The notes under the pieces were generated by a model. The model was not told the origin of the DNA. It searched no databases and saw only the letters and a program-made list of their open reading frames with translations. This document shows, one piece after another, positions 34,301 through 50,993 of a stretch of DNA of 64,000 nt. Both the position numbers and the translations under genes were made by a program. Every line of letters begins with the position of its first letter. Positions within the stretch are counted from its first letter, which is position 1. This stretch comes from Arenibacter echinorum. GTDB taxonomy: Bacteria; Bacteroidota; Bacteroidia; Flavobacteriales; Flavobacteriaceae. Location: NCBI RefSeq assembly GCF_003259375.1, contig NZ_QLLN01000006.1, positions 310,001-374,000 of the forward strand, in the 5' to 3' direction.

Positions 34301-34355
34301 CAACTAAACTCAACTCAACTTAAATTATTGTATTTCTTTCAATGTAATGTCTAAC

Positions 34356-35450
34356 TCAATAAACCTCTGAATGCTTAGGTTCTTTTTTGTGCCAATAGGA
34401 TGCCAATATGGATCCCGTTATGTTCATCAGTGGCCCGAATACCGCTGGGGCCAGTCCCATGGTCGCTATCTTACCCAAAGAATTGGCTATCCCTGAGGCA
34501 AGGCCCCCATTTTGCATCCCAACTTCCAGTGCAATCGTACGTGAATCCTGCTCATTCAACTTCAATAGTCGAGCATACCAATACCCTAGCATGTACCCAA
34601 ATAAGTTGTGGATAAGCACCAATAACATTAAGATTCCCCCTATATCCAAAAGACTGTCCCTTCCCGCTGCCGTTATTACAACAATAATCAATCCAATACC
34701 CAGCATGGAAATTACAGGTAGTGCCTTGTCCATCCATTTAGCCTTATCTCCCCGCAAACGGTTAAACAACAGACCAACACCAAGGGGTAAAATAATCATC
34801 TTTACAATACTCCACATCATATCCAGCACATCTATTTCTATAAATTCGCCAGCCAAGAACTTCATAAGAAGTGGTGTTATAAAGGGAGCCAGTAAAGTAG
34901 ACACAGAGGTAATTGTAATGGATAGTGCCAAATTGGCCTTCGCCAAATATGCCATTACATTGGATGCCACCCCACTAGGGGAACAGCCGATCAGAACGAT
35001 CCCTGCCGCGATTTCCGGTGGAAAATTGCTATATTTTGCCAGGACAAAACCCATGATGGGCATAATACCCAACTGTGCCGTGACCCCGACCATTACCCCT
35101 TTGGGCGACTTGATAACTTCTGCAAAATCGCCAAGTTTCATTGAGGTTCCCATACCGAACATAATGAGTTGGATCAAGGGTATGATCAGTGCGGTAAGCT
35201 TAAAATCGCCTATCTGCAAAAAGTATTGGGGGTAATATAGCGCCAGGGCTACTCCGGCAAATATGGAGGCTGTAAATACATAACTGTTCAGGGACTTATA
35301 TCCACTGAAGCCAAAGGCCAGAAGTGCAAAAAAGGCCATTATCAATAGCCCGGCATGTTCAATATTATAGGTAAAGATCATGCCCAAAATTGCCAACAGA
35401 AATATGGCGGCCATGCCAAGACAAATGGAATAAATATTCAATTTTTTCAA
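34356..35450 (-). CDS. BASS (bile acid:sodium symporter)-family carrier
   Basis: 364 residues, about ten predicted membrane helices. GIVLIGCSPSGVASNVMAYLAKANLALSITITSVSTLLAPFITP carries the conserved Gly-Cys-x-x-Ser/Pro-Gly...SN unwound region that binds Na+. Members import organic anions such as bile acids, pantoate or 2-keto acids with Na+. The last gene of the minus-strand accessory block, 27 nt after the SnoaL-like gene. The most economical idea is that it imports the carboxylate made by the periplasmic enzymes upstream. Residues 1-75 form a longer N-terminal part than usual (two to three extra helices). Confidence 0.85.
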   Translation of the reverse strand: MKKLNIYSICLGMAAIFLLAILGMIFTYNIEHAGLLIMAFFALLAFGFSGYKSLNSYVFTASIFAGVALALYYPQYFLQIGDFKLTALIIPLIQLIMFGMGTSMKLGDFAEVIKSPKGVMVGVTAQLGIMPIMGFVLAKYSNFPPEIAAGIVLIGCSPSGVASNVMAYLAKANLALSITITSVSTLLAPFITPLLMKFLAGEFIEIDVLDMMWSIVKMIILPLGVGLLFNRLRGDKAKWMDKALPVISMLGIGLIIVVITAAGRDSLLDIGGILMLLVLIHNLFGYMLGYWYARLLKLNEQDSRTIALEVGMQNGGLASGIANSLGKIATMGLAPAVFGPLMNITGSILASYWHKKEPKHSEVY

Positions 35451-35477
35451 AATAGTTTGGTTTAGGTTATTGTGGTT

Positions 35478-36026
35478 CTAGCTGGGCAATTTATAAGCCT
35501 GTCTGGCCAAAAGCCGAAGTTTGCCGTCCTTCCCTTTTTGATAGACCTGCATATTGCCGATACGAACATCCACAGGTTCCCCGGCATTGGTGCCTTTGGC
35601 CAAAAAAATATGTCTAACAATTGCTGTATTCCCAGAAATATGGATGGTCTGGTCAGCAGCTTCCAAAGACAAAAAATCGAACGGGCCGTTCACTAAATCA
35701 TCTATAAACGCGTCTTTGTTCTGAATAAGTCCGCTCGAATGACCATAGGTAAGTTCCTCAGAGCACAACGTTTCCATGAGTTCCGCGGTCGGATTTACCA
35801 TGACTTTATTAAAAGCTGTCACAGCCTTTTGAACTTCATCAATAGTGGGCAGATCTTGCCCTTCCATGGTAGTACTAGTAGAAGTTTCAGACTTCGTGTG
35901 ATCTGTATTTTGCTTACACCCCATCAATATGAACAGGGCGAAAAAAACAATGATCCAGCTGCTTTTTATTTTGTGATCTTCTTTTTGATCCTTGACTTTC
36001 ATTAATTCCTGTAGTCCGATTACCAT
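35478..36026 (-). CDS. Lipoprotein with a SnoaL/DUF4440 (NTF2-like) domain
   Basis: 182 residues. A hydrophobic stretch with lipobox ILMGC gives a lipoprotein; a Ser/Thr linker (TSTSTT) is followed by an NTF2-like DUF4440 fold at about 70-180 (VTAFNKVMVNPTAELMETLCSEELTYGHSSG and IHISGNTAIVRHIFLAKG). The start codon overlaps the end of the RraA-like gene by 7 nt; a second ATG at 36002 is possible and would shorten the leader. Periplasmic; NTF2-like proteins act as small isomerases or ligand sinks. Its place between the RraA-like gene and the carrier suggests a step late in the pathway. Confidence 0.75.
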   Translation of the reverse strand: MVIGLQELMKVKDQKEDHKIKSSWIIVFFALFILMGCKQNTDHTKSETSTSTTMEGQDLPTIDEVQKAVTAFNKVMVNPTAELMETLCSEELTYGHSSGLIQNKDAFIDDLVNGPFDFLSLEAADQTIHISGNTAIVRHIFLAKGTNAGEPVDVRIGNMQVYQKGKDGKLRLLARQAYKLPS

Positions 36027-36946
36027 GTCCTTTTACTTAAAATCTTATTCAAAGTCTCCTTGGACATTTTTACCAATTCCGGATGTTTGTCCAGCCATTC
36101 AAAAAATTCCGCTTTTAGCTTTTCGTTCCAATCACTATCTATCTCTCCTGTAGAATATTTTTTGGTCTTTACCATCTCAAAACCAAACTGGTCCTTAAGA
36201 GCTACAAACTCCGCAGTGCCTACTACCTGTTCGGCCAAATGCGCAGGAATAAAAAGTACACCTTCCCTTTTGGCAAGGACAAGATCTCCGGGCAATACCA
36301 TTACCTGGCCTATCCGTATTGGGGTGTTGAGTCCCATAAGTACTTCTTCCTCCAAAAAGGATGGGTGAAAATCCCTTACAAAGGCATTGAATCCTTCTAT
36401 CTGGCTTATACTCTCCAGATCCCTTGCACTGCCATTAAAAACCACTCCGTTGCCGGACTTGCTGTAAATGGAAGTTGCGAGGGTAGCTCCCATAAGGGTG
36501 CCCGTATCGATCTTGCCAAAACTATCCGCAACATAAACGTCGCCTTTAGTGAGTACCTCAATGGGCCATGAATTGGTATTTCCCTTCCTACCCTGCGAAT
36601 TTATTCCCCTTTCCTTAACGCTCTTCTCCACATCGGGGCGGCTCGGCATGAACAATGCCGTAAGTGCCCTACCCACAACAGGAACCTCATCGTGTACCAT
36701 TTTCCAATTGCCCTCGAACTGATTTTTATATCCTTCGTTTTCCAGGACGGTCCATGCATCATCGATACCAATTTTTTTTGCCCGTTCCAAAAGATCGTCC
36801 GGAATTTTTGGACGCCCATCGTTAAACCGTTCCCCTTTCCATTCGGAGGTCAAAAAAATAAGTTCCTCCTTGGGAATGGTCTGTCCCAATACATTAAAAG
36901 TGAGTAAAAATGAGAAAAGGAATAGTACAATTATATTGAACTTCAT
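36020..36946 (-). CDS. Exported RraA-like protein (HMG/oxalocitramalate aldolase superfamily)
   Basis: 308 residues with a Sec signal (MKFNIIVLFLFSFLLTFNVLGQ). The RraA-like core (about 75-270) holds the conserved KGDVYVADSFGKIDTGTLMGATLA, then GVVFNGSARDLESI with R175-D176, the Arg-Asp pair that forms the metal and keto-acid site in the aldolase subgroup. Cytosolic relatives cleave 4-hydroxy-4-methyl-2-oxoglutarate or decarboxylate oxaloacetate. An exported form is unusual. It lies between RidA (36 nt upstream) and the SnoaL lipoprotein (overlapping). The substrate here is probably a 2-oxo acid made by the PLP enzymes and RidA. Confidence 0.8.
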   Translation of the reverse strand: MKFNIIVLFLFSFLLTFNVLGQTIPKEELIFLTSEWKGERFNDGRPKIPDDLLERAKKIGIDDAWTVLENEGYKNQFEGNWKMVHDEVPVVGRALTALFMPSRPDVEKSVKERGINSQGRKGNTNSWPIEVLTKGDVYVADSFGKIDTGTLMGATLATSIYSKSGNGVVFNGSARDLESISQIEGFNAFVRDFHPSFLEEEVLMGLNTPIRIGQVMVLPGDLVLAKREGVLFIPAHLAEQVVGTAEFVALKDQFGFEMVKTKKYSTGEIDSDWNEKLKAEFFEWLDKHPELVKMSKETLNKILSKRTW

Positions 36947-36981
36947 TGTGCAAAAAGGTTTATAAGATGTTGATCGGTTTA

Positions 36982-37458
36982 CTAGTCCAACGCGGCTATA
37001 CAGTCCATTTCCACTAAGGAATTCCCGGGAACGCCACCATAAGTAGCAACAGTAGTCCTTACCGGAGGGTTTGGTCCAAAACGACCCCTAAACACTTCGT
37101 TCATTCCCTTGTAATCCGCCAAATCGGCCAAATATACATTTACCTTGAGTACCTTTTCCATGGAAGAACCATGTTTTTTTAGCTCCTTTTCCAGCTCTTG
37201 CAGTACAATTTCGGTATGTGCCTTGATCTCATAAGGTTCCACATGCGCGCCCTTCCCTGCAATATAAAGAGTATTCCCGTGTTTTACGCCTCCTGAAAAT
37301 AATGGAATATCCTGATCCATGACGATGTCACCTACGACTTCTTTTTTTGGTTTTGAACCTCCGTCCATTGCCTTGGCTGCGGCACCCAGGCCAAACATGG
37401 CCGCCAATCCCATTCCTAATTTTTTAAAAGATGCCCTTCTAGTTGTTTTGTTTTCCAT
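36982..37458 (-). CDS. Exported RidA-family imine/enamine deaminase with a Tat-like signal
   Basis: 158 residues. An N-terminal TRRASFKKLGMGLAAMFGLGAA is a Tat-like signal (twin Arg, short hydrophobic core). The RidA core (about 50-158) has the substrate-binding R134 in PPVRTTVA and E150 in LVEMDCIAAL, both kept, which mark the deaminase-active subgroup. RidA hydrolyses enamines/imines released by PLP enzymes to 2-oxo acids and ammonia. Nearly all known members are cytosolic; here it is exported together with two PLP enzymes. It begins the 3' part of the block (RidA, RraA-like, SnoaL, BASS); a 254-nt gap precedes it. Confidence 0.85.
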   Translation of the reverse strand: MENKTTRRASFKKLGMGLAAMFGLGAAAKAMDGGSKPKKEVVGDIVMDQDIPLFSGGVKHGNTLYIAGKGAHVEPYEIKAHTEIVLQELEKELKKHGSSMEKVLKVNVYLADLADYKGMNEVFRGRFGPNPPVRTTVATYGGVPGNSLVEMDCIAALD

Positions 37459-37712
37459 GGTTATAAAATTTAAGATTTAATACAAAAAAGTTTTAATTAT
37501 AATAAGCTGTAAAAATTTAATCTGAGGTCATAAAATATATAAAGTCGCTTCATAGGTTATTTAGGGTGTATGAATTATAAAATTTTATTTCAGCAAATGG
37601 TGCTCCATTACTACGTTCATAACTTTCTATCCTGTTTATAGCCTTATTTATGATGCATTATTTTGCAATTATCCCTTACTATAAATCATACTTTTTCGGG
37701 ATTTCATGCTAC

Positions 37713-38963
37713 TTATTTTTGAAAGTCGTTCGCTGCAAGGCCATTCAAATCCCAAAGTACCTTACCCCCCTTTATAGTAAGTTCAGCCTCTAATTTCTGT
37801 TTTCCTTTGATTCTGTTGCCAGCGGCATCCACAAAACCAAAACTACCCGCCCTCACTCCTAATATAGCAATGTCCGCCACTGCCCCTATGTCCAAATTAC
37901 CCAGATCTTCACGTTTTATGGCCTTTGCAGGGTACCAACTTCCCCTGAGTAACACTTCATTCAAAGGCATACCCATATTAAGGTACTTAGACATTAAATT
38001 CAGCATGTCCTTCATCCCCGCGTTCATACTAAATCTGTGGAAATCAGTACCGAATGAATTGGGCCACAGACCCTGTTCAAATGAGGGTAACGCTTGGTCG
38101 AACCAGAAACCAGCTCCACCATGGCCCACATCGAAAAGGACGCCTCTGTCTTTGGCTTTCAATACGAAAGGTCTTAATTTTCCATTATCATCCACCACCG
38201 GCATGCGTTCAACAATATTCTCATATGAATGGGTAATGATATCTCCTGGTCGCATACGCTCGAGTTGTTCTTTCAAAGAATATTGTGGAAGGTGGCATTC
38301 CACGAATAAGGGCCTGTCAGTTTTTGAAGCAGCTTCTAAAGCCCTTTCGAAGGGCAACCAACTTTCCCCATCATAATGACCTATCTTTACTCCAACTATA
38401 ATATCTGAGTATGCCTTAATTATCTCCATGGTTTTGATGGCATCCATTTCATCAAGATCATGCTTAGCATCCTCAATTTGAGTTAAAGAGACTTCTGTCC
38501 CGCTTATGCCATGAGCGGCAATATTTAAAAAAACAAGGATTCTTGTTTTGGATACGTCGATTACCTGTCTTTTAAATTGTGGAAAATTTTGCCAACCAGA
38601 AGTGCCTGCATCCACAACTGTTGTTACCCCAGATTTGAAACTAAAGTCATCCGGGGATATACTATTGATCCCATCCGCAAACTTACCAGGTTTTGGCCCC
38701 ACAAAAACATGAGTATGTATATCGATAAGGCCAGGGCTTACATAGAGACCCGTTGCATCAATAATTTGTTTAGCTTTTTCTGTCTTTAAATGCTGTGCCA
38801 CTCTAATTATTTTACCATCGGCTATGGCTATATCCATAGGTTTATCTATTTGATTTTTAGGATCAAATACATGACCATTTATAATTAGAATATCAATTTC
38901 CTGTCCCTTTACAGCAAAGGATAGGATAACTAGCAAAGCAAAGATTATATTCATTTTTTTCAT
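37713..38963 (-). CDS. Exported amidohydrolase (COG3964/EF_0837-like), copy 1
   Basis: 416 residues with a Sec signal (1-20). The amidohydrolase barrel has the metal ligands H83 and H85 in DIHTHVF, likely carboxylated K193 in GVKIGHYDG, H224 and H245, and the catalytic D307 in FGTDFHRFS. In the slot where characterised COG3964 members (as I recall) carry a His after the strand PLxV, this copy has E222 (VECH). Relatives hydrolyse N-acyl or O-acyl D-amino/hydroxy acids. Copy 2 lies at 40674. A SelA-like PLP gene comes 38 nt upstream, so each amidohydrolase is read behind a PLP partner. Confidence 0.85.
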   Translation of the reverse strand: MKKMNIIFALLVILSFAVKGQEIDILIINGHVFDPKNQIDKPMDIAIADGKIIRVAQHLKTEKAKQIIDATGLYVSPGLIDIHTHVFVGPKPGKFADGINSISPDDFSFKSGVTTVVDAGTSGWQNFPQFKRQVIDVSKTRILVFLNIAAHGISGTEVSLTQIEDAKHDLDEMDAIKTMEIIKAYSDIIVGVKIGHYDGESWLPFERALEAASKTDRPLFVECHLPQYSLKEQLERMRPGDIITHSYENIVERMPVVDDNGKLRPFVLKAKDRGVLFDVGHGGAGFWFDQALPSFEQGLWPNSFGTDFHRFSMNAGMKDMLNLMSKYLNMGMPLNEVLLRGSWYPAKAIKREDLGNLDIGAVADIAILGVRAGSFGFVDAAGNRIKGKQKLEAELTIKGGKVLWDLNGLAANDFQK

Positions 38964-39001
38964 TTGTTTTACAAAATTTAAAATTCGGCTTAAATTCTAA
39001 T

Positions 39002-40633
39002 CTATGTTGCCAACGGCGCCCCTGCTGGTATCGAAATCCTTTTATTACCCGATTGATAGGTCACTCGATTAGCGGTAAATTTGGCCGTAAGGTATTCGCC
39101 CAAAAACACGGAACCACTTAGGATTCCGTTCGCCACCTTTCCCGAAAACCAATAATTGATGGAGTTTCCAGGGACACTAAAATGACTTTTAAGTTTTACC
39201 TCATCACCTTCGATCATTCCCGCCATTTCTTGCATAGAATAGTCGCTGGTATGTGTACCTTTAATCCAATTTCCTTCTTGTTCCAAGAAGAATTTATGGC
39301 TGCTCTTACTAGTGAAAAACTCCATTTCTACATCCCAATGGCCTGCAAGGTCAGCATTCGCCTTAACCATATCCTCCGAACGGGGTTCCCGTTTTGCAGA
39401 TAATATTTCATGAAGTCGGTTGGCCACCACCTTGGCATTTCCAGGTCTCATTTGACTGGGAGTAATGGAAATCATTGTTGTCCCGTCGTCGGACGTATTT
39501 CCTCCAATAGCTATTCTAGGTGTATTGCAGGCCACCTCTTCTGCTATTTCCTCCCCAGTAATATGCAAGCTTTCCGGATCCCATTTTAGAAGTAATCTGG
39601 GAGCCCTATTGTCTAAACTCGTCGGTAGCTGAACTTCTGAGCTTATACCCTTTATTTTGGTGATTTTCGATGAAATTTTCTCCAACCAGGCCAGCCAGGT
39701 GTCCCACTCCTTATCATGGTCCCTGGTAGTCCAAGCCTCTACTGCAGCCAACATCCCCAACATTTCCTCTTTCCCAACCTTGTTGTCCCTTCCCGGACCG
39801 TGGTGGGGCGAACTGGCTTGCCAAGCAGCCATCAATAAATTTTTATCTCCCAACAAAAGTCCAGCACATTGAGGTCCGCACATGGCTTTACCCCCACTGT
39901 AAGCAACTACCGTAGCACCCCTCTCCAGATGCACACAGGGAATACTCAAATTCTCGGCAGCGGCATCAGCCAAAATAGGGATATTCTTTGGTTTGGCAAT
40001 CTTGCTAATAACCTCCAAGGATAGTGGTTTACCTGTTTCATTATCCCTTCCGGTCATTATATAGATCATGGCAGTTCTGGAATTTATAGCTTTTTCCAAC
40101 TCGTCTGGCGTATCTACCATGATTAACTTGACCCCTATATTTCGAATGGCCTGGTCATAAACATTTCTAGAACTACGTGGAATTATAACCTCATTTTTTT
40201 CGAAGCCCTCCAAATTGGGTATTCTAATTAGCTTCTCTGGATTTCCCCCGGTTACACAAGCGGCCGTAACATGTTTCATGCCGGCGGCACAACCCGCCGA
40301 TACCATTCCCCAGTTGGCCTTGGTCAACTCCGCCAAGCGCCGACCTATTGCAAAGGCCAATTCATCATACTGGACAAAATAGCCTGTTGCGGCTTCCATG
40401 GCCTCCAATACTTCCGGACGTTCGGTAGATCCACCTAGAATGGTAAAGGTACCTCGGCAATTTATAATGGTATCTACACCAATAGATTCATATATATTCT
40501 GTTCAGCTGTGAAGGGCTTGGCAACCATCGGGGCGGCTGTGCTCATTACATTCCCAAACATGGTTTCACTGGCCATTAAACTCCCCGCAATGGGAACAAC
40601 GCCCAATTGCTTAATTATATCTCTACGCTTCAT
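39002..40633 (-). CDS. Tat-exported SelA/DgaE-like PLP enzyme with an extra C-terminal domain, copy 1
   Basis: 543 residues. N-terminus MKRRDIIKQLGVVPIAGSLMA is a Tat-like signal. The PLP core (about 45-430) is of the SelA-like fold used by D-glucosaminate-6-phosphate ammonia-lyase (DgaE): D223 in PILADAAAE (pyridine-N contact) and Schiff-base K249 in YSGGKAMCGPQ. The C-terminal 110 residues (from NADLAGHWDVEMEF) form an all-beta extension, perhaps lipocalin-like, that copy 2 lacks. It likely removes ammonia or another group from an amino substrate. Exported PLP enzymes are rare; Tat export would let the enzyme fold with its cofactor in the cytosol first. Confidence 0.85.
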   Translation of the reverse strand: MKRRDIIKQLGVVPIAGSLMASETMFGNVMSTAAPMVAKPFTAEQNIYESIGVDTIINCRGTFTILGGSTERPEVLEAMEAATGYFVQYDELAFAIGRRLAELTKANWGMVSAGCAAGMKHVTAACVTGGNPEKLIRIPNLEGFEKNEVIIPRSSRNVYDQAIRNIGVKLIMVDTPDELEKAINSRTAMIYIMTGRDNETGKPLSLEVISKIAKPKNIPILADAAAENLSIPCVHLERGATVVAYSGGKAMCGPQCAGLLLGDKNLLMAAWQASSPHHGPGRDNKVGKEEMLGMLAAVEAWTTRDHDKEWDTWLAWLEKISSKITKIKGISSEVQLPTSLDNRAPRLLLKWDPESLHITGEEIAEEVACNTPRIAIGGNTSDDGTTMISITPSQMRPGNAKVVANRLHEILSAKREPRSEDMVKANADLAGHWDVEMEFFTSKSSHKFFLEQEGNWIKGTHTSDYSMQEMAGMIEGDEVKLKSHFSVPGNSINYWFSGKVANGILSGSVFLGEYLTAKFTANRVTYQSGNKRISIPAGAPLAT

Positions 40634-40673
40634 GATTTATAGTTTTAGTTTTTGCTCAATTCACAACGATGAA

Positions 40674-41924
40674 TTATTTATCCCACTCCTCACTAGATAA
40701 ACCATTCAAATCATATACTATCCTACCGTCTCTTATTGTAACTTCACATTCCAATTTTTTATCTCCTTTCAATTTCATTCCTTTAACATCAACAAATCCA
40801 AAATCACCCTTTCGCATATTCAAAATTGCAATATCTGCAGCAGCGCCTACTGATAAATGTCCCAAATCAGTTCGTTTAATGATTTGTGCCGGATTCCAAG
40901 TAACTGTACCAATGACATCTACCAAGGGCATATTCATATTAATAAATTTCGACATTATATTGAGTATATCTTTCATTCCTCCATTCATACTACCGGTGTG
41001 GAGATCGGTACTAATAGAATTAGGTCTAAGCCCTTGCTTCATCGCTGGTACGGCCTGTTCGAATAAAAAGCTTCCTCCACCGTGACCCACATCCATAATC
41101 ACGCCTCTTTTTTGAGCTAAAAATACGTAGTCTCGTACCTTTCCTCTTTCATCCACAATTGGCGTACGACCTTGAACATGGCCATAGGTATGGGTAAAAA
41201 TATCACCAGGACGCAATTTTTCCAACATCAGTTTTTCCAATGATAATTCTGGCTCACTCCCGCCGAAATCCACCATTATAGGTATATCCGCCAACCTGCC
41301 CGCTTCAACCGCACGCTCAGTAGGTGTCCAATCGAACCCATGGTAATGTGCCAGTTTAACCCCAACGACTTCTCCTGGAAATTGATTGGCTACCATAGCA
41401 GTTAGCTTTGCATCCATATCAGCTATGTTCTGCTCAATGGCACCGCCTTTCATACCCGAACCAACAATATTTAAAAACGCCAGGACCCGGGTCTTTGACT
41501 GATCAATCACCTGATCCTTGAATTGCTGAAAATTTCGCCACCCTGCTCCACCCACATCCACTAATGTGGTTACTCCACTTTCAAAACTGAACCCGTCCGG
41601 GGCAACCGCGGAAAATCCATTACTCAAATATGCGTTTGGTTCAGTGCCATAAAAATTATGACTATGAATATCGATTAAACCAGGGGTCACAAATAGATCT
41701 TTAGCATTGATAACAGTTTTGGACTTTTTTTCCGAAATGTTAGTGGCAACTTCCGCTATTCTTCCATTTGCTATGGCCACATCAATGACCTTGTCAATAC
41801 CATTCTTTGTGTCAATTACATGACCTCCTTTAATAAGAAGATCAAATTCTTGACTACTGGCTAGATTTGATACAGATAATACAATTACAAAGCCAATTAA
41901 AAATTTATAGTTATAGATTTTCAT
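40674..41924 (-). CDS. Exported amidohydrolase (COG3964/EF_0837-like), copy 2
   Basis: 416 residues, the same length as copy 1 and clearly a paralogue. Sec signal at 1-24. H87 and H89 in DIHSHNF, K190 in GVKLAHYHG, H245 in FTHTYGH and D307 in ISTDLHTGS are kept. At the position of copy 1's E222 it has D219 in IMVDFGGSEP, so an acidic residue replaces the expected His, which may change the metal site from the known family. It lies 40 nt upstream of the copy-1 PLP gene and 250 nt after the copy-2 PLP gene. Confidence 0.85.
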   Translation of the reverse strand: MKIYNYKFLIGFVIVLSVSNLASSQEFDLLIKGGHVIDTKNGIDKVIDVAIANGRIAEVATNISEKKSKTVINAKDLFVTPGLIDIHSHNFYGTEPNAYLSNGFSAVAPDGFSFESGVTTLVDVGGAGWRNFQQFKDQVIDQSKTRVLAFLNIVGSGMKGGAIEQNIADMDAKLTAMVANQFPGEVVGVKLAHYHGFDWTPTERAVEAGRLADIPIMVDFGGSEPELSLEKLMLEKLRPGDIFTHTYGHVQGRTPIVDERGKVRDYVFLAQKRGVIMDVGHGGGSFLFEQAVPAMKQGLRPNSISTDLHTGSMNGGMKDILNIMSKFINMNMPLVDVIGTVTWNPAQIIKRTDLGHLSVGAAADIAILNMRKGDFGFVDVKGMKLKGDKKLECEVTIRDGRIVYDLNGLSSEEWDK

Positions 41925-42174
41925 ATTTAATTCAGGTATAAGGTTTTTATTAATTCTTGTTTTTTATCATTTGAAATCCGTTCATTACTAGGTGCCGAAT
42001 GAAAAGGATTCACTATTACAATTATTCTAAAGTGTACATGAAACCAATTGGCATTACCAGCCCACCAAACATTATTTGAGTTTATCTCGAAGGCCCAGTA
42101 TTAGTACTTTTAATTTTCAATGGACTTGTAAATAATTGCATTTAATTTTGAATTTGCTGCCCAAAGATCGATTA

Positions 42175-43416: not shown

Positions 43417-43443
43417 CTTTATATAATTATTAATATTTTCCAA

Positions 43444-43910
43444 TTTGGCATATAATATCCCAGAAGCAAATCAATTTATATGGTTTTAGAAAACTTTAGA
43501 TTTTTATTAACAGTAGATCGAGACAAAAGGAATCTCCTCTTCGGCGATTATTGAGTTATACAATCTTAAGCAACCATCCGTGTTAGGATAATGATTTTAA
43601 GCAAAATAGCTCCAATAATCAACTATCTGAGAAGACAATCCAATCGCCGATGGCCCTTTAGGTTCAGTCTACGATATAACAAATAATATTGAACCAATAG
43701 GTTTCGAAGAGAAAGGGCTTATTTTGAAAGTTCAAACTACTTCCAACCACTTTTTCATTAACCGCCTTACTTTTGATACATCATTCAAGAATTGACCCTT
43801 ATAAACCATAGGTCCAGGTATCCCTCTATTAATTGATAATCTTCTTTGCTCCTGAAATTACCGGTAATACTACTTATGGATTATTTTCAGTTTGTCTTAA
43901 TTAATAACTT
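43444..43910. other. Intergenic region between the SusD-like and SelA-like genes
   Basis: 467 nt within the minus-strand block. A 9-bp inverted repeat (TCGGCGATT at 43541, AATCGCCGA at 43642) spans it. Minus-strand frames give short peptides (such as RGIPGPMVYKGQFLNDVSK) broken by stops, so a decayed gene is possible. No clear promoter seen. Confidence 0.35.
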
Positions 43911-45467
43911 TCAAGGTTTATCCCACCAAACTGTACTCGTTAGCGCATCCCCTACCCCTTGCCGATCTAATGCCTCCTTATAATTAGCGGCATTAATAGT
44001 GCTCTCAGAATCAGGCAATACAAAACGTGTAGGGATTTTTCCACCAGTAAGGTTTCCTGGATAATTCACAGGGACTAAATCTGGATACCCAGTGCGCCTC
44101 CAATTGGCAAAAATTTCATACTCATCTAGAAATAGTGTAACCCATTTTTGAGTTTGTATTTGATCCATTTTTTCCTCGAATGAACCAGCGGCATTAAAGG
44201 GATTATTGGTAAGATATGTATCAATGTGTTGGTCCGAAATAACACCCGCATCACCGTATAGTGACCACTGTTGCATACCTGCTCTTACTGCTTCTTCATA
44301 TAGAACCGCAGCATCGCCAGTGTACCATCCCCTAATTGCTGCTTCAGCAATCAGTAGTTTCATTTCTGCGTTTGTCATAATCATTAAAGGAGAATCGTAG
44401 GCCAAAACAGTTTCAGGATGTGGTTCTGAGAAGGTAGCAAAATTTTCAGGTCTGTTGTTAAAAGCAGCATTGGGCATACCCGTTTGTATTGCTGTGGTTG
44501 TATCGGCAACATATAATCCGCTACCGTTATCAATCCAAACCACAGATAGTACATTTAACCTTGGATCACTGGTATCCTTGAGGTGATCGATAAAAGTTTT
44601 GGCGTATTTCCCTCCTTCTACATTCTCTACACTTTGCGGGTTTATATAATCGCCGTTCATTAATCCCTGTGCTATTGGATTCCGGCTAGAAACCTGAGAC
44701 CCATCAACGTAAGCTATAGCGGCCAAATCACTATTCTCTAGAATAACTCCACCTTCAATAGCTTTTTTAACCCAAGTCTCCGATAGCTGGGAGTCGACAT
44801 TAGTTAAGCGCATTCCTAAACGCAACATTAAAGAATATGCAAATTTCTTCCACTGGTCAACGTTCCCCCCGTAAAGCAGATCAGATGACCCGAATGTAGC
44901 TTTGTTGGAATCGAAAGCGTTTGCGGCTTCTTCCAATTCTTTCAACATATCAAGATAAATAAAGGATTGCTCATCATACTTGGGCGTATAAATTTTCTCA
45001 GTTACACCCTTTCCTGCCTCAGAATATGGGATATCTCCGTAAAGGTCTGTTATATGGTGAAATATATAGGCTCGCCATATCCTAGCCATGGAATGCTTAT
45101 TAATATTTTCGGTATCTTCCGAGACCGCTAGAATCACTTCTTGAATCTCATTTACCGCCAATGGGTAAATAGTTGAAAAATATCCTTTGGAATACCCATC
45201 ATTAAAATATTTATCTCCAGCAGCAGGCACTTCCTTATAGGTTGCGAACTGCTGCATGGAACCACCAATAGTTAAGGCTGCAGTCCCAAAATAACTTACA
45301 TTAACAGCATCCAATTGTGCTTTTGTAAAAAGATATTCAGGAATAATCTCACCATATACATCCGGGTTTTTATTTAGAGCTTCCAAATCACTATCACATG
45401 ATAATGTTATGGAAATGATGACGAACCCTAGCGCCATATTTATATATTTAAGTGCATGAATTTTCAT
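43911..45467 (-). CDS. SusD-like (SusD-like_2) surface lipoprotein
   Basis: 518 residues. Lipoprotein signal with C at ITLSC. The SusD-like_2 subgroup is marked by NKNPDVYGEIIPEYLFTKAQ, the QQFATYKE segment and ARIWRAYIFHHITDLYGDIPY, with TPR-like helices through the middle. It should cap the SusC barrel 21 nt upstream and bind the ligand. This subgroup is often found with peptide or non-glycan substrates, which fits a pathway for an acylated amino compound. Confidence 0.88.
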   Translation of the reverse strand: MKIHALKYINMALGFVIISITLSCDSDLEALNKNPDVYGEIIPEYLFTKAQLDAVNVSYFGTAALTIGGSMQQFATYKEVPAAGDKYFNDGYSKGYFSTIYPLAVNEIQEVILAVSEDTENINKHSMARIWRAYIFHHITDLYGDIPYSEAGKGVTEKIYTPKYDEQSFIYLDMLKELEEAANAFDSNKATFGSSDLLYGGNVDQWKKFAYSLMLRLGMRLTNVDSQLSETWVKKAIEGGVILENSDLAAIAYVDGSQVSSRNPIAQGLMNGDYINPQSVENVEGGKYAKTFIDHLKDTSDPRLNVLSVVWIDNGSGLYVADTTTAIQTGMPNAAFNNRPENFATFSEPHPETVLAYDSPLMIMTNAEMKLLIAEAAIRGWYTGDAAVLYEEAVRAGMQQWSLYGDAGVISDQHIDTYLTNNPFNAAGSFEEKMDQIQTQKWVTLFLDEYEIFANWRRTGYPDLVPVNYPGNLTGGKIPTRFVLPDSESTINAANYKEALDRQGVGDALTSTVWWDKP

Positions 45468-45488
45468 GATATAATGAATTATAAATTA

Positions 45489-48400
45489 TTAAAATTTTAA
45501 GTTTAAGTCTAATCCTATACTCCTTGTTCTAGGCACTCCAAAAGCTTCCAGACCCTGTGCATTCCCATTTGTATAACTGGATTCGGGATCAAATAAATCA
45601 GTGTTTTTATATAGTATGGCGATATTTCTCCCTACCAGACTAATCGATGCAGATTGCAGATTAACAAAACTTAAGCGTTCAACAGGAATCTTATAACTTA
45701 AAACAACCTCCCGCAGTTTTACAAAACTTCCATCATATACGAAAATATCCGTGTATCTTTTATGGTTATCGTAATAAGTGTCCAATTCTTCAACGGGCAC
45801 TACCCTTTGATATGGGTTGCCAGCAGTATCCACGCCCGATAACGGCAGACCATTTTCCCTACCCGGAAGTGTTGCCTTGGTAAGTCCAAACCTATGCGAG
45901 TATTGTGCCAAATTGGAGAACATGGAATTACCAAATTTTCCGTCCAACAAAATATTTAACGAAAAATCCTTATAAGAAAATTCATTTGTAAAACCCATGG
46001 TTAATGGTGGAACGCCCTCTCCTATCTCGGTTATTTCACTTCGCAACTCATAACCACTATTGGAATCAAAGATTTTATCTCCATTATCGTTAGTGGCCAT
46101 TTTATAACCCCATATCGTACCGTAGGGCCTCCCTACTACATTTTGAATAGATCCTCCTCCAATTCCACTTCCTATCTGAATTGTGCTTAAACCCTCCGCC
46201 AGTTGTTTTATTTCACTTTTATTATAGGCCATATTATAACTTACGTCCCATTGAAAATCTTCATTCTTTATAGGTGAACTCGTTATTAATAACTCTATTC
46301 CTTTATTACCAATTTTTCCTACATTCAATAAAGCTCGAGTATATCCAGAACCCGTTGAAATATCTGTCTGGACAATATCGTCTGTTGTAGTCCGATTATA
46401 AAAAGTCAGATCGATACCAAGACGATATTCCAACATTTTCGCATTTAGACCAACTTCATAGGTCGTGGAGGTATAAGGTCGCAAATCAGGATTAGTAACT
46501 AATGAGGAAGATATTTCCTGCACAGGCCTTCCATTATGTCCTCCTTGAACAATTCCATATGCCTGATTTATTAAATATGGATCTGGTGCTCCACCACCAA
46601 CTTGTGCCCAGGACGACCTCAACTTTACAAAATTAAAGACATCCGGAAGTACTACTGCTTGAGACAATAGAAAGCTTCCTCCCACAGAGGGGTAAAAAAT
46701 ATGGTTGTTTTCTGGGCTTAAAGTCGAAAACCAATCTTCCCTTCCTGTTAAAGTTAAAAATGCAAGCTCTTTGTAACCAATATCTATAGAACCGAATAAT
46801 GAATTAACCCCGGTTCTCCGATTATCTGGAGTTGTCGTTAGCGTACTTAGATTGGTATAACTATAATATTCGGGTATTGTAAATTGTTGGCCATCTATAG
46901 CCGTGGAGTTATTTACATTTCTTTGTTGATTTCCACCCGCCATGGCAGAAAAACTAAACTTTTCAAAGAATTTAGTATTGTAATTAAGGGTGAATAAAAG
47001 ATTCGTTTCTGATACATTAGCTTGTAATGATTCATAACTACCGCCTGGCCTGAAAGCTGTGTACGATGGTGTAATCCCTACGTATTCAAAATAGTAAAAA
47101 TCCTTACTCATTGTACCTCGGGCACTCAGGTTTTTCAATATGTCATACGTAATATTAACTTGTCCAATAAATCGGTTTTTCGTATCAAAATTCTTATATC
47201 TGTTCACAACCCAATATGGATTATTGGCAACATTTACTGGGTTCCATAAAATCTCACTACCGTCCTCATTATAACCTGGCGCCATATTCCTGACATCTAC
47301 AGTATTGGAAACTAAATGTGTTGCCCACGCCGCATTATCATCAGCATAACCAGTACCAGGCCTGTTATTGGCCTTTTCAAGATTATACTGCGCAACAGCT
47401 TCGACGTTGAGTTTTTCACCTAATTTGGAATTTAAACTCAAGTTCGCCGTCTTTCTATTAAAATATGAATTAGGAACTACACTTTTGGCTTCTAAATTTG
47501 ATAAAGACAACCTAAAATTAATAGCCTCCACTCCACCAGTCAGTGCTACTGTATTAACGATATTTGTTCCTGTTCTATAGAAATTCTTAATATTATCCTT
47601 TACATATACTGGTGAATATGGACGTTCAACACCATCAAATTGTATAACTGGGGTTCCATCCATTGGCGCTCCAAATGACAAACGTCCCCACTCAATTGCC
47701 TGGTCCTTTGTAGTAGGTTTAGTACCATTTGAGCCTGCACCATACTCATATTGGTAATCGGGAAACATAGAAGGAGTATCGTAAGTAACATTCCCACTAT
47801 ACTCCACACCTATGCCCTTCTGAACCTTGCCTTTTTTAGTAGTAATAAGAATAACACCATTCGCAGCTCTTGAACCGTATAATGCTGCCGCGGCACCACC
47901 TTTCAGTACACTTATAGTTTCAATGTCGTCAGGATTGATTCCGGCAATACCATCTCCCCTATCAACATTAATTCCCTGACCACCAGTTGAAGATCCTCCA
48001 CCAGGTATGGAATTATCGATAGGCATACCATTTACAACGTATAAAGGTTGATTATCGCCCGATAAGGAACCATTGCCCCTAATTATGACCCGGCTTGAAC
48101 CTCCTGGACCCGTAGCTAAACCCGTTGCATTTACACCAGCAATCTTACCCGTTAAGGCATTTGCTACATTTGCTTCCCTAGCCTCTGTAAATTTTTCTCC
48201 ACCTACTTCAGACACAGAATAAGCCAGTGCCTTTTCGTTCCTTTTTATTCCTAATGCCGTTACCACGACCTCGTCCAATCCTGCGGCATCTTCCAAAAGG
48301 GTTACGGAAATATTAGATTGGCCATTAAGATTTATTTCTTTTGTGGCGAACCCGACATAAGAGATGACTAGAACTGCGTTGGCATCCTTTAGGTTGATAG

Positions 48401-48929
48401 TAAAATTCCCATCAAAATCCGCAGTAACACCGTTTGAAGTTCCTTTTACCACTACATTTGCACCGGGTAAAGGAGTTCCATTTCCATCCCCAACGTTTCC
48501 AGTTACGGTCAGTTGTTGTATTACCGCACCTATTGGGATATCATCCTTTAATTTAATAACACTCGGAGGTTGTTTGGTAAGTACAATCTGTCTGTTGTCC
48601 AACACCTCATACTTTATGTGGGTATCTTTAAAGAGTTGATTTAATATTTCATAAATTTTTTCTTTTTTAACATGGATTGCTATTGTTCGCCCAAGGTCAA
48701 TTTCTTTATTCTTATATAGAAATCTAAATTCACTTTTACCTTCAATTTCCTTAAATACGTCATTTATAGATATTTGATCATAATCAAGTGAAATCTTTGT
48801 GTTCTGTGAATATGAATTGGCTTGAATCTTAAAAAGTGAAACTATAAGAAGGAAGGTGGTTAGTTTCATTTTGAGGGTCATTTTGAAAGGAATAGGGCTA
48901 GGCCATCCCTTAAAACAGATATTTTTCAT
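45489..48929 (-). CDS. SusC/RagA-like TonB-dependent transporter with STN domain
   Basis: 1146 residues. Signal peptide near 20-42, STN domain at about 48-120 (ISINDVFKEIEGKSEFRFLY), a carboxypeptidase-D-like repeat at 138-222 (GTPLPGANVVVKGTSNGVTADFDGNF), then the TonB plug (EVVVTALGIKRNEKA, RGNGSLSGDNQPLYVVNGMP, VLKGGAAAALYGSRAANGVI) and barrel to RTRSIGLDLNLKF. The STN domain and the FecR gene upstream mean it signals its cargo to the sigma factor. A 24-bp palindrome lies 59 nt upstream. The SusD-like gene follows 21 nt downstream. Confidence 0.95.
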   Translation of the reverse strand: MKNICFKGWPSPIPFKMTLKMKLTTFLLIVSLFKIQANSYSQNTKISLDYDQISINDVFKEIEGKSEFRFLYKNKEIDLGRTIAIHVKKEKIYEILNQLFKDTHIKYEVLDNRQIVLTKQPPSVIKLKDDIPIGAVIQQLTVTGNVGDGNGTPLPGANVVVKGTSNGVTADFDGNFTINLKDANAVLVISYVGFATKEINLNGQSNISVTLLEDAAGLDEVVVTALGIKRNEKALAYSVSEVGGEKFTEAREANVANALTGKIAGVNATGLATGPGGSSRVIIRGNGSLSGDNQPLYVVNGMPIDNSIPGGGSSTGGQGINVDRGDGIAGINPDDIETISVLKGGAAAALYGSRAANGVILITTKKGKVQKGIGVEYSGNVTYDTPSMFPDYQYEYGAGSNGTKPTTKDQAIEWGRLSFGAPMDGTPVIQFDGVERPYSPVYVKDNIKNFYRTGTNIVNTVALTGGVEAINFRLSLSNLEAKSVVPNSYFNRKTANLSLNSKLGEKLNVEAVAQYNLEKANNRPGTGYADDNAAWATHLVSNTVDVRNMAPGYNEDGSEILWNPVNVANNPYWVVNRYKNFDTKNRFIGQVNITYDILKNLSARGTMSKDFYYFEYVGITPSYTAFRPGGSYESLQANVSETNLLFTLNYNTKFFEKFSFSAMAGGNQQRNVNNSTAIDGQQFTIPEYYSYTNLSTLTTTPDNRRTGVNSLFGSIDIGYKELAFLTLTGREDWFSTLSPENNHIFYPSVGGSFLLSQAVVLPDVFNFVKLRSSWAQVGGGAPDPYLINQAYGIVQGGHNGRPVQEISSSLVTNPDLRPYTSTTYEVGLNAKMLEYRLGIDLTFYNRTTTDDIVQTDISTGSGYTRALLNVGKIGNKGIELLITSSPIKNEDFQWDVSYNMAYNKSEIKQLAEGLSTIQIGSGIGGGSIQNVVGRPYGTIWGYKMATNDNGDKIFDSNSGYELRSEITEIGEGVPPLTMGFTNEFSYKDFSLNILLDGKFGNSMFSNLAQYSHRFGLTKATLPGRENGLPLSGVDTAGNPYQRVVPVEELDTYYDNHKRYTDIFVYDGSFVKLREVVLSYKIPVERLSFVNLQSASISLVGRNIAILYKNTDLFDPESSYTNGNAQGLEAFGVPRTRSIGLDLNLKF

Positions 48930-48987
48930 ATTTTTGTTTGGTTAATCGGTTTAACAATAGTCAACGTTAAATCACATTATCTCAATT

Positions 48988-49011
48988 CGGGGGATGGTCG
49001 GACATTCCCCG
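48988..49011. promoter_or_regulatory. 24-bp palindrome upstream of SusC (operator or 5'-UTR hairpin)
   Basis: CGGGGGATGG then TCGGACATTCCCCG: arms CGGGGGAT and ATTCCCCG about an 8-nt centre. It is 59 nt before the SusC start and 61 nt after the FecR stop. The SusC of the sulfatase locus has a matching element at 63030-63053; both fit CGGGrrATGG...CATTyyCCG. Either the target of the cognate system or a conserved transcript hairpin. Confidence 0.6.
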
Positions 49012-49071
49012 TTTTATGTGATATAACAAAATTTACTTTAGTTCTGTTTGTTAATTCATAGGCAATCAGTT

Positions 49072-50223
49072 TTAGTTTATTGTTATAACATTGTTTTCAC
49101 TTATAGTAAAGTGATAAGGGCTATTTTTAGATATATAGTTAATTACCTGTTCAATATTTTCTTTTTCTACATTAAAAGTAGCACTAAAAATTTCGTCATT
49201 TAATGACTGATTATTATTTATTATGGTGCAGTTGTAACTTCTTTCCAATTTTTTAATAATATCCTTGAAAGGCACTGCTCGAAATACCAATTGACCGTTC
49301 ATCCAGGCCAAAGTCGAGGGAATATCAGCCTTAGCAACTACCATTTGTTTTTGAACTTTATCCCAAATTGCCTCATGTTCAGGTTGTAAAAGAACAGCTG
49401 TAGCATTTTCTATATTATTATCTAGCAGCTGAACTGACCCTTCGACCAATACCGTATTCATAGACCTGTCATCTACGTAGGCGGATACGTTAAATTGAGT
49501 TCCCAATACCTTGACATTAATGCTTTCGGCATTAACTATAAAGGGGTCTCTATTCTTGGTGACTTCAAAAAATGCCTCTCCAGATAGAAAAACTTTCCGA
49601 TCAGCATTGGGAATAAATTTAACTGGGAATTTCATACTTGAACCAGAGTTTAAAAATACCCGAGTCCCGTCAGAAAGTGTCACTTGAAACCTTTTGCCAT
49701 AGGGTACTTTAAGAGTATTGTAAACGAGCTCGGAAAGTTCCGTATCCTCATATTGAATACCCTGTTTTATTTGTTTCCCAATAACTTCACCCTTTTCCGA
49801 AACAATGTCTTGAGTTTCCTCCTCTTTCAGTATGACAGATCGCCCATTTTCCAACTCTAAGGTTATTGTTTGATCAGTTTGTAATGGCACAGTAATTGGA
49901 GGTGTTAATTTTTCCTTTTGAAATAAAAACACTACCCCTAGGGCTATTACCAATATGGCAGCATATTTAGCAATACTTAAAACACGCTTTCTCCTGTACT
50001 GCCTTTTATCTTTTTGAATTTTATTAAGTAAAAGTCTTTTTACTTCCTCAGTATTATATGTGCTCAATTTAAAATCTATTGAATAATTAATTTTAACATA
50101 TTCCTGAAACGTCTCCTTATTCCCTGGCTGTTCCAGCCAAAAAACAAGCTCATCCAGTTCATCCTGCGTTATGGAATGGTTAACATATTTTACTATTAGA
50201 CTATCACTATGATTCGGCTTCAT
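49072..50223 (-). CDS. FecR-type anti-sigma factor
   Basis: 383 residues. Cytosolic N-terminal domain (about 1-80), one membrane helix near 86-104 (IAKYAAILVIALGVVFLFQ), then the FecR domain (LSDGTRVFLNSGSSMKFPVKF, AFFEVTKNRDPFIVNAESINVKVLGTQFNVSAY) and a DUF4974 C-terminal domain (FKDIIKKLERSYNCTI). It senses the SusC STN domain in the periplasm and holds the ECF sigma. Unusually, its partner sigma gene is divergent (50347, plus strand, 123 nt apart) rather than upstream on the same strand. Confidence 0.92.
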   Translation of the reverse strand: MKPNHSDSLIVKYVNHSITQDELDELVFWLEQPGNKETFQEYVKINYSIDFKLSTYNTEEVKRLLLNKIQKDKRQYRRKRVLSIAKYAAILVIALGVVFLFQKEKLTPPITVPLQTDQTITLELENGRSVILKEEETQDIVSEKGEVIGKQIKQGIQYEDTELSELVYNTLKVPYGKRFQVTLSDGTRVFLNSGSSMKFPVKFIPNADRKVFLSGEAFFEVTKNRDPFIVNAESINVKVLGTQFNVSAYVDDRSMNTVLVEGSVQLLDNNIENATAVLLQPEHEAIWDKVQKQMVVAKADIPSTLAWMNGQLVFRAVPFKDIIKKLERSYNCTIINNNQSLNDEIFSATFNVEKENIEQVINYISKNSPYHFTISENNVITIN

Positions 50224-50346
50224 AACTTATTAAATCTATAATAATTTAGTTAATTCTATTTGAATTACGGAGCCATTTTGCTAATCCCCTACTTTTTTCC
50301 AAAAAAAATTCACATATTTGAATAATTCTTTTTTAAAAGTCGAAAA

Positions 50347-50946
50347 ATGATGTGGGATTTTAGTATCAATTCCGTTTTGATAGATCAGTTGGAAAAGGGC
50401 AATGAAAAGGCTTTTTCCTTTTTAGTCGATAACTATAATCACAGGTTATGCGTTTATGCTAATAGTTTGGTAAATGACAAGGTGAGAGCCCAAGATATAG
50501 TACAGAATGTTTTTATAAAAACTTGGGAAAGAAGGGAAATGCTAAAAAACAATCTTTCTATCAAGGGGTTTATGTATCGAGCTGTCCACAATGAGTTTAT
50601 TGATCAATATAGAAGTAATAAATCCCTTTTGGCGTTAGAAAAATTATATGTAGACACCATTTTACAATTTGAAAAGGAATCGGAATCAGAAAAAATAGAG
50701 AAAATAATGAATATGGTGATGTGTGCCATAAACGAACTACCCCCAAAATGCCAACAAATTTTTCTTTTGAGCAAAAAAGAAGGATTGGACAACATTGAAA
50801 TCGCTGAATACTTGGAAATATCGCGTAAGACTGTTGAGAATCAAATAACTAAAGCCTTTGCCATCTTAAGGGAAAAGCTAGGAAAGAAATATGAGATGAT
50901 AATGTTTCTTGTCTTCGGTAGCGAAATTAAAGGATTGGCAAAATAA
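50347..50946 (+). CDS. ECF sigma factor of the FecI/Bacteroides-I type
   Basis: 199 residues. Region 2 is at about 20-85 (NYNHRLCVYANSLVNDKVRAQDIVQNVFIKTWERR) and region 4 at about 130-180 (INELPPKCQQIFLLSKKEGLDNIEIAEYLEISRKTVENQI). Both match the Bacteroides expansion family-1 sigmas paired with FecR and SusC. It should drive the SusCD locus on the minus strand when the anti-sigma is released. ATGATG start; either of the first two codons will do. Divergent from FecR, with a shared 123-nt promoter region. Confidence 0.92.
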   Translation: MMWDFSINSVLIDQLEKGNEKAFSFLVDNYNHRLCVYANSLVNDKVRAQDIVQNVFIKTWERREMLKNNLSIKGFMYRAVHNEFIDQYRSNKSLLALEKLYVDTILQFEKESESEKIEKIMNMVMCAINELPPKCQQIFLLSKKEGLDNIEIAEYLEISRKTVENQITKAFAILREKLGKKYEMIMFLVFGSEIKGLAK

Positions 50947-50993
50947 CCAACTATCACAATTTTTTACTTATAAATCGGTAAGTAAATCTCTTT

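What the first reader, a model, noticed from the sequence alone, without database searches (positions are those of the whole stretch)
34356..50946. SusCD-linked, wholly exported PLP / RidA / amidohydrolase pathway
From FecR to the terminator at 34266 the minus-strand block encodes SusCD, two SelA-like PLP enzymes, two amidohydrolases, RidA, an RraA-like aldolase-type enzyme, a SnoaL lipoprotein and a BASS carrier. All soluble enzymes carry an export signal: Tat-like on both PLP enzymes and RidA, Sec or lipoprotein on the others. Tat would suit cofactor-loaded PLP enzymes. RidA hydrolyses enamines/imines that PLP lyases release, so pairing them in the periplasm makes chemical sense. Proposed flow: SusCD uptake of an N-acyl or cyclic amide compound, amide hydrolysis, PLP ammonia loss, imine clearing by RidA, C-C cleavage by the RraA-like enzyme, import of the acid by BASS. 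I know no described pathway with this set outside the cytosol; the substrate is inferred only.
Basis: partly seen in the sequence, partly recalled or inferred. Interest (0 to 1): 0.85.

Follow-up and report, generated by a model that had tools for sequence, protein, structure and literature searches.

The report
Exported amino-sugar-acid degradation pathway
A gene cluster in a Bacteroidota-type bacterium appears to break down amino-sugar acids outside the cytosol, with a vitamin-B6 enzyme and its clean-up partner RidA both sent across the inner membrane, an arrangement for which I found no published example.

Summary
Window 34356-50946 encodes SusCD, two SelA/DgaE-like PLP enzymes, two amidohydrolases, RidA, an RraA-like protein, a DUF4440 lipoprotein and a BASS carrier; each soluble enzyme has a credible export signal (Tat-type on both PLP enzymes and RidA). 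It is not chance: amidohydrolase and RidA accompany the exported PLP enzyme in 42 of 52 long relative loci and in 6 of 6 other genomes from a second draw; none of the three is in 20 random regions. Neighbours point to the substrate: cytochrome-c-fused sugar dehydrogenases, sugar lactonases, KDGal kinase, KDPG aldolase, a galactonate-type transporter. Best reading: a periplasmic counterpart of the D-glucosaminate (Dga) and chitin-oxidation (Ong) routes: deacylation, PLP beta-elimination, RidA hydrolysis of the enamine, then aldol cleavage and BASS uptake, or uptake followed by DgoK/Eda. The exported PLP enzymes lack DGL's proton-donor His163 and nearly always its three phosphate-site Args, which predicts an unphosphorylated substrate and release of free enamine. 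Substrate and activities are untested. The RidA-RraA-DUF4440-BASS half is a duplicated cassette that also occurs without the PLP enzymes, and rhizobial homologues keep His163 yet have RidA. New variant of known chemistry in a new compartment.

The parts
34356..35450 (-). BASS-family carrier (SBF; 230.8 bits to PanS model), candidate 2-oxo-acid importer
   Evidence: below the TIGR00841 and PanS cut-offs
35478..36026 (-). DUF4440/SnoaL-like lipoprotein
36020..36946 (-). RraA-like class II aldolase-type protein, Sec-type signal; Arg123/Asp124 equivalents of HMG aldolase present, Asp102 equivalent is Ala here
36982..37458 (-). RidA with Tat-type signal; active-site Arg and Glu present (positions recalled)
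37459..37712 (.). 254-base gap, boundary of the duplicated RidA-RraA-DUF4440-BASS cassette
37713..38963 (-). amidohydrolase AHS2 (PRK09237 family), Sec-type signal; strand-5 ligand position Glu
39002..40633 (-). PLP enzyme PLP2, Tat-type signal, exported subclade 2 with a C-terminal extension of about 120 aa without Pfam match
40674..41924 (-). amidohydrolase AHS1 (PRK09237 family), Sec-type signal; HxH, Lys190, His245, Asp307 conserved, strand-5 position Asp
42175..43416 (-). PLP enzyme PLP1, proposed start at the internal ATG (MKRRKIF), Tat-type signal, exported subclade 1; PLP Lys247
43911..45467 (-). SusD-like lipoprotein (SusD-like_2)
45489..48929 (-). SusC-like TonB-dependent transporter
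   Evidence: named from sequence and position, not scanned on its own
49072..50223 (-). FecR-type anti-sigma factor
50347..50946 (+). ECF-type sigma factor, divergent
   Evidence: named from sequence and position, not scanned

Best explanation
The locus encodes a periplasmic degradation module for N-acyl-2-amino-2-deoxy-aldonates (N-acetylglucosaminate or N-acetylgalactosaminate type). SusCD brings the compound or a larger precursor across the outer membrane (inferred). In many relatives a cytochrome-c-fused sugar dehydrogenase, in some also a lactonase, would make the acid from an N-acetylhexosamine in the periplasm (inferred from context; in this genome they lie at other loci). The exported amidohydrolase removes the acyl group. 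The Tat-exported, cofactor-loaded DgaE-like PLP enzyme eliminates water across C2-C3 and lets go of an enamine, because it lacks the proton-donor histidine of the known enzyme. Exported RidA hydrolyses the enamine/imine to a 2-oxo-3-deoxy acid and ammonia. That acid is either split by the exported RraA-type aldolase to pyruvate plus an aldehyde, with BASS importing the 2-oxo acid, or imported whole and passed to DgoK and Eda in the cytosol. Shown: gene set, recurrence, residue changes, neighbours; export signals by rule-based prediction only. Inferred: substrate, every reaction, transport and regulation.
For: Recurrence in the 52 long loci: AHS 48, RidA-type 42, both 42, dehydrogenase 38, lactonase 22; in 26 genus-level groups (loci pooled): AHS 25, RidA 22, dehydrogenase 19, lactonase 6. 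Second draw: 7 of 296 phylum genomes have the PLP enzyme; the 6 besides the own genome have, in the stretches fetched, AHS 6, RidA-type 6, dehydrogenase 5, SMP-30 5, RraA 3, BASS 4. PLP, AHS, RidA, dehydrogenase, lactonase, RraA and BASS labels: none in 20 random 20-kb regions of four of these genomes. Same genome, second site: GSDH-cyt c, AHS, Tat-PLP and lipoprotein RidA in a row. Substrate class, one representative per cluster: GSDH 38.3 bits, SGL 150, Lactonase 371.5, DGOK 176.6, Eda 173.8 over its cut-off, galactonate-transporter-like MFS 250.8, under its cut-off; RraA or BASS in 0 of 6 DgoK loci, as two alternative exits would predict. Chemistry: closest solved relatives by profile DGL 7lc0 (1.1e-50); in 107 sequences the PLP Lys 107, Asp189 107, His at the His163 column 0, all three phosphate-site Args absent in 104. 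DGL H163A stays active but releases free enamine (PMC9529869, parts 1 and 2 of 3 read). RraA: Arg123/Asp124 equivalents invariant in 11 of 11. Exported PLP enzymes separate from the 10 cytosolic ones as one group, support 0.989.
Against: No activity was measured. Signals come from home-made rules; Sec calls have a high background (87 of 285). Rhizobial homologues keep both His residues and still have RidA beside them (4 of 4 examined), and RidA is absent from 6 of 6 DgoK loci, so RidA does not track His163 loss one to one. The His163 column lies in a loop two residues shorter, so its alignment is uncertain; 30 of 107 have some His in the loop, and Arg226, near the carboxylate in DGL, is Arg in only 35 of 107. 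Cap15 scores slightly better than DGL by structure. The amidohydrolases have Asp or Glu instead of His at the strand-5 metal position in 11 of 11 rows. The window RraA has Ala at the Asp102 position; Asp in 5 of 11. The GSDH match is partial and no PqqE passes its cut-off in this genome. Lactonases are in only 6 of 26 genus-level groups. The window locus itself has no dehydrogenase or lactonase. 10 of 52 long loci lack RidA and 4 lack AHS too.
Confidence: 0.58

Rival explanations
1. Same exported enzymes and order, but the substrate is an N-acyl (D-)hydroxyamino acid or a related N-acyl amine, not a sugar acid; the sugar genes nearby belong to other routes.
For: The amidohydrolase family is broad and annotated only as deacetylase; RidA classically serves serine/threonine dehydratases (recalled). 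9 of 52 long loci have no sugar-acid marker (43 of 52 do).
Against: Dehydrogenase, lactonase, DgoK, Eda, galactonate-type MFS beside the module; nearest characterised PLP relative by profile acts on a sugar acid.
Confidence: 0.15
2. Two neighbouring but separate modules: PLP/amidohydrolase genes with SusCD, and a RidA-RraA-DUF4440-BASS cassette that serves some other periplasmic chemistry.
For: 82% identical cassette elsewhere beside SMP-30, GH88 and sulfatase-like genes without PLP or AHS; 254-base gap at the boundary.
Against: A RidA type stands near exported PLP in 42 of 52 long relative loci and a different, lipoprotein RidA stands in the second same-genome site; RraA, BASS, RidA, PLP and AHS occur together in L025, L045, L094, L101, L102 and L105, L108, L109.
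Confidence: 0.15
3. The PLP enzymes are oxygen-dependent oxidases like Cap15 rather than ammonia-lyases.
For: Cap15 (8t7j) is the top structural match, just ahead of DGL (1.6e-23 against 3.4e-23); DGL's catalytic His pair is missing.
Against: By sequence profile DGL is closer (1.1e-50 against 4.5e-39); neighbours fit a 2-oxo-3-deoxy acid product.
Confidence: 0.07
4. The signals are misread and the enzymes are cytosolic, as in the Dga and Ong routes.
For: No SignalP was available; Sec rules are permissive.
Against: Tat calls on 102 of 108 PLP and 55 of 58 RidA against 4 of 285 random genes and none on the 9 PLP and 4 RidA homologues from plasmid loci; in-locus controls negative.
Confidence: 0.04

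Closest known systems
Dga pathway of Salmonella and relatives (DgaABCD PTS, DgaE = DGL EC 4.3.1.29, DgaF aldolase)
   Same: DgaE-family PLP enzyme beside a PRK09237-type amidohydrolase and an aldolase; proposed product a 2-oxo-3-deoxy acid
   Different: Cytosolic, phosphorylated substrate; no RidA within 5 kb in 5 of 5 such loci examined (L134-L138); DGL has His162/163 and Arg301/332/346, which the exported enzymes lack nearly throughout
Ong chitin-oxidation pathway of Pseudoalteromonas prydzensis (PMC9537276; abstract, outline and 12 passages seen)
   Same: Deacetylation then PLP deamination of an N-acetyl-aminosugar acid, with a RidA (OngD) essential for growth, role unknown
   Different: OngB is a D-aminoacylase-type enzyme (the exported amidohydrolases match PpOngB only at 29 bits over the N-terminus); OngB and OngC are predicted cytosolic; SSS carrier
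Rhizobial RidA and DgaE-like PLP loci (L139-L142)
   Same: RidA beside a DgaE-like PLP enzyme in 4 of 4, with a PRK09237-type amidohydrolase in 3 of 4
   Different: His pair and Arg301/332 kept, Arg346 is Cys; RidA (4 of 4) and amidohydrolase (3 of 3) without signal by my rules (Sec called on 3 of 4 PLP, which I take as false); ABC transporter in the two annotated loci
Periplasmic 3-keto-glycoside routes (BT2157, LacABC-DUF1080; PMC9007349, passages seen)
   Same: Multi-step oxidative sugar chemistry proposed outside the cytosol, also in Bacteroidota
   Different: Different enzymes; no PLP enzyme, RidA or deacylase in the passages seen

Membership tests
[quoted passage not shown]
   Lys of the SGGK motif (213 in the chain numbering; the paper says Lys-217) in 107 of 107; fold match to 7lc0
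[quoted passage not shown]
   His163 column His in 0 of 107, His162 column His in 5 of 107; loop alignment uncertain
[quoted passage not shown]
   all three absent in 104 of 107; absent in both window enzymes
[quoted passage not shown]
   145 and 129 bits against 600; TIGR01437 155 and 162 against 385
Ong pathway | OngB-type D-aminoacylase | tested here: not met
   29 bits to PpOngB; best matches are other amidohydrolases
Ong pathway | cytosolic deacetylase and deaminase | tested here: not met
   export signals by my rules
PRK09237 amidohydrolase/deacetylase | curated score cut-off | tested here: met
   400.5 and 439.8 against 371
PRK09237 amidohydrolase/deacetylase | metal site HxH, Lys, His, His, Asp (pattern recalled) | tested here: inconclusive
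   all conserved but the strand-5 His, which is Asp in 9 and Glu in 2 of 11; His in the solved relatives shown
RidA (PF01042) | Pfam cut-off | tested here: met
   64 bits against 27.3; TIGR00004 56.6 against 106.25 not reached
RraA-like class II pyruvate aldolase | Arg123 and Asp124 of HMG aldolase | tested here: met
   invariant in 11 of 11 and aligned to 3noj
RraA-like class II pyruvate aldolase | Asp at position 102 (recalled D-X20-R-D motif) | tested here: not met
   Ala in the window, Asp in 5 of 11
BASS carrier | SBF domain; import of a 2-oxo acid | tested here: inconclusive
   SBF 140 bits met; transport not testable; TIGR00841 241 against 326 not reached
PQQ sugar dehydrogenase (neighbour in relatives) | GSDH domain and cofactor site | tested here: inconclusive
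   PF07995 38.3 against 25, partial; cofactor residues not tested; only the cytochrome part matches solved chains; no PqqE over cut-off

The most novel reading that the evidence does not exclude
A complete oxidative amino-sugar route outside the cytosol: N-acetylhexosamine is oxidised by a cytochrome-c-fused dehydrogenase, delactonised, deacylated, deaminated by a Tat-exported PLP lyase that has lost its proton-donor histidine and so hands a free enamine to an exported RidA, and cleaved to pyruvate in the periplasm. RidA here is a pathway step in a compartment where I found it described nowhere, not a housekeeping repair enzyme.
Probability: 0.38. Interest if true: 0.87.

Novelty: new variant of a known kind. 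Interest (0 to 1): 0.72.

Why it matters
RidA and most PLP lyases are known as cytosolic enzymes (recalled). If the pair works in the periplasm, RidA can be tested as a true pathway enzyme for an enamine that the lyase is built to release. That would also suggest a role for OngD in the marine chitin-oxidation route, which its authors left open. It would add amino-sugar acids to the compounds that Bacteroidota process by multi-step chemistry outside the cytosol, and give a function to families now annotated only as 'SelA-like', 'amidohydrolase/deacetylase' and 'RraA-like'.

Tried and rejected
Considered and set aside. (1) A strict rule 'His163 lost, therefore RidA present': rejected, because four rhizobial loci keep the histidines and have RidA, and six DgoK loci lack RidA. 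(2) One operon from SusC to BASS: not supported by the gaps, and the TAnnTTTG promoter-like motif occurs at chance level in the window (82 found, 81.5 expected). (3) A riboswitch or other RNA element: no Rfam match over the gathering score in 33700-51500. (4) My first signal rules (used) call Sec on 142 of 285 random genes; stricter rules were used for the counts, and even these call Sec on 5 of 9 PLP homologues from plasmid loci. (5) OngB membership: not met. (6) A second draw, from the class of G249, gave only the centre genome itself, 1 of 198 at E 1e-100: the trait is rare and patchy. Rows dropped: ORFs cut by locus ends or outside length limits, and near-identical ones, in the alignments (10 of 108 PLP, 11 of 105 AHS, 11 of 13 RraA rows kept); 27 loci shorter than 19 kb in the 52-locus counts; the '80 loci' include one TatC locus (L104), so the relatives number 79. 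The 26 genus-level groups were typed by hand from record titles.
Full report
WHAT IS THERE. Two points were added. PLP1 most likely starts at the internal ATG (MKRRKIF...), which places its twin-arginine motif at the N-terminus. PLP2 carries about 120 extra residues at its C-terminus with no Pfam match. Of the soluble enzymes, both PLP enzymes and RidA have Tat-type signals, both amidohydrolases and the RraA-like protein have Sec-type signals, and the DUF4440 protein has a lipobox. The genome encodes TatC.

HOW SURE ARE THE SIGNALS. SignalP was not available, so I wrote rules and controlled them. With the stricter rules, read from the first ATG, relatives (window included) gave Tat on 102 of 108 PLP enzymes and 55 of 58 RidA proteins, and some signal on 99 of 105 amidohydrolases, 11 of 13 proteins of the second RidA type and 12 of 13 RraA-like proteins; gene products of the same loci not expected to carry one gave 0 of 6 (DgoK), 0 of 5 (Eda), 0 of 34 (FecR) and 0 of 34 (sigma; 5 of 34 if any start is allowed). 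In 285 random genes Tat was called 4 times and Sec 87 times. Tat calls are therefore strong and Sec calls weak on their own. For the amidohydrolases, 7 of 7 homologues from plasmid loci were negative; for PLP homologues there Sec was called on 5 of 9, which I take as false, and Tat on none.

IT RECURS. A scan of genome contigs with the three PLP enzymes of this genome returned 79 loci, the best kept of at least 577; by title they are Bacteroidota or MAGs of that kind, plus one Fodinibius whose phylum I did not look up. In the 52 with at least 19 kb: amidohydrolase 48, a RidA type 42, both 42, cytochrome-c-fused GSDH or the GDH2 family (my name; no Pfam match) 38, lactonase 22, SusC and SusD 18, BASS 13, RraA 9, DgoK 4; four loci (L080, L087, L091, L098) have neither amidohydrolase nor RidA. 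Many loci are from related strains, so I also pooled them into 26 genus-level groups: 25, 22, 22, 19, 6, 10, 7, 7 for the first eight of these. A second draw of 296 phylum genomes found the PLP enzyme in 7, own included; the other six have amidohydrolase 6, RidA type 6, dehydrogenase 5, SMP-30 lactonase 5, BASS 4, RraA 3 in the stretches fetched; one further stretch, at a contig end (L111), holds the PLP gene alone. Species may overlap between the two sets. Twenty random 20-kb stretches from four of these genomes, ten of them from the own genome, held no PLP, amidohydrolase, RidA, dehydrogenase, lactonase, RraA or BASS label; four had a sulfatase-type, one a NagB-type and one sigma, FecR and SusC. 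A draw of 198 genomes from another class gave 1, the centre itself, at a stricter cut-off: the trait is rare and patchy.

SAME GENOME, OTHER SITES. L024 (contig 2) holds, in one direction, GSDH-cyt c, amidohydrolase, Tat-PLP and a lipoprotein RidA, so RidA is paired with an exported PLP enzyme a second time with another kind of signal. L009 (contig 2) holds RidA, RraA, DUF4440 and BASS at 82% DNA identity over 3092 bases, beside an SMP-30 lipoprotein, GH88 and sulfatase-like genes and without PLP or amidohydrolase in 20 kb. Most codon differences in the RidA pair are silent (53 silent, 4 changing). The window block is thus two modules side by side, with a 254-base gap between them.

WHAT THE NEIGHBOURS SAY. 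Clustering of neighbours (81 loci, window and L024 included) gave GSDH-cyt c in 49, CBM9 in 33, SMP-30 in 21, BASS in 17, seven-bladed lactonase in 15, RraA in 13, galactonate-type MFS in 7, DgoK in 6, Eda in 5; names rest on one representative per cluster. The DgoK loci contain no RraA, BASS or RidA (0 of 6 each). I read RraA plus BASS and MFS plus DgoK plus Eda as two exits for one 2-oxo-3-deoxy acid; MFS and RraA do occur together in L027 and L092. Three sulfatases with SusCD lie upstream in the window; a link is possible but untested.

CHEMISTRY. [quoted passage not shown] the predicted structure of PLP1 (mean pLDDT 78) matches Cap15 and DGL about equally. In 107 sequences, the window's included, the PLP lysine and Asp189 are invariant, none has His at the His163 column, and all three Args near the phosphate are absent in 104; Arg226, near the carboxylate in DGL, is kept in 35. 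In DGL, His163 protonates the enamine; the authors call H163A fully active (their table has kcat 20 against 27 per second and kcat/Km about three times lower), but it releases the enamine, and they connect this to RidA and toxicity (PMC9529869, two of three parts read). This predicts an unphosphorylated substrate, as a periplasmic enzyme needs, and a job for exported RidA. It is not a clean rule: four rhizobial homologues keep the histidines and have RidA next door, while five Dga-type loci keep a His at 163 and have none within 5 kb; and the loop is hard to align. The amidohydrolases keep HxH, Lys, His and Asp in 11 of 11 but have Asp or Glu at the strand-5 position; the AHS1 model (pLDDT 88) is closest to the amidohydrolases 8je0, 8wzy and 2ics. 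The RraA-like proteins keep the Arg/Asp pair of HMG aldolase in 11 of 11; the window copy has Ala at position 102 (with passages of PMC5065237, 90). In a tree of 28 sequences the exported PLP enzymes group apart from the cytosolic ones (support 0.989, midpoint rooting) with two subclades, and the window holds one of each; two epimeric substrates would be one explanation.

KNOWN OR NEW. The chemistry has two cytosolic precedents, Dga (PMC9529869) and Ong (PMC9537276; abstract, outline and passages). Paper searches for an exported RidA or this gene set gave no title or abstract opening that describes it; I opened only four papers, and the library holds open-access papers only. Tat-exported PLP enzymes are known (PvdN, recalled). 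I file it as a new variant of a known kind, in a new compartment.

Noticed in passing
window 53269-62975: SusC-SusD locus with three sulfatases carrying SGSH_C domains just upstream of the finding; possibly a sulfated, amino-sugar-containing glycan.
   Followed up: partly
L009 7040-11330: Second copy of the BASS-DUF4440-RraA-RidA cassette beside SMP-30, GH88 and sulfatase-like genes (DHDPS-like genes by eye), without PLP or amidohydrolase.
   Followed up: partly
window 39005-39367: C-terminal extension of PLP2 (about 120 aa) with no Pfam match; members of exported subclade 2 are likewise long, about 520-560 aa.
   Followed up: partly
L139-L142 (Aminobacter, Sinorhizobium, Rhizobium, Hyphomicrobiales plasmids): RidA beside a DgaE-like PLP enzyme (4 of 4), amidohydrolase in 3 of 4; DGL's His pair and two of three phosphate Args kept: a likely relative route without PTS.
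   Followed up: partly
L093 15606-16844, cluster also in L054, L061, L063, L084: Enolase-superfamily sugar-acid dehydratase near the PLP gene, in four of the five loci with a sulfatase; Tat-type call on 4 of 5 members by the first rules.
   Followed up: no
G000 contig 4, 579480-580628 (L145, L150): A diverged GSDH-cyt c homologue read with one TGA inside, possibly a decaying copy.
   Followed up: no
L087, L091, L098: Lone Tat-PLP enzymes among sulfatases beside a protein of one family, 588 aa in L098, with no Pfam match there; no amidohydrolase or RidA nearby.
   Followed up: no
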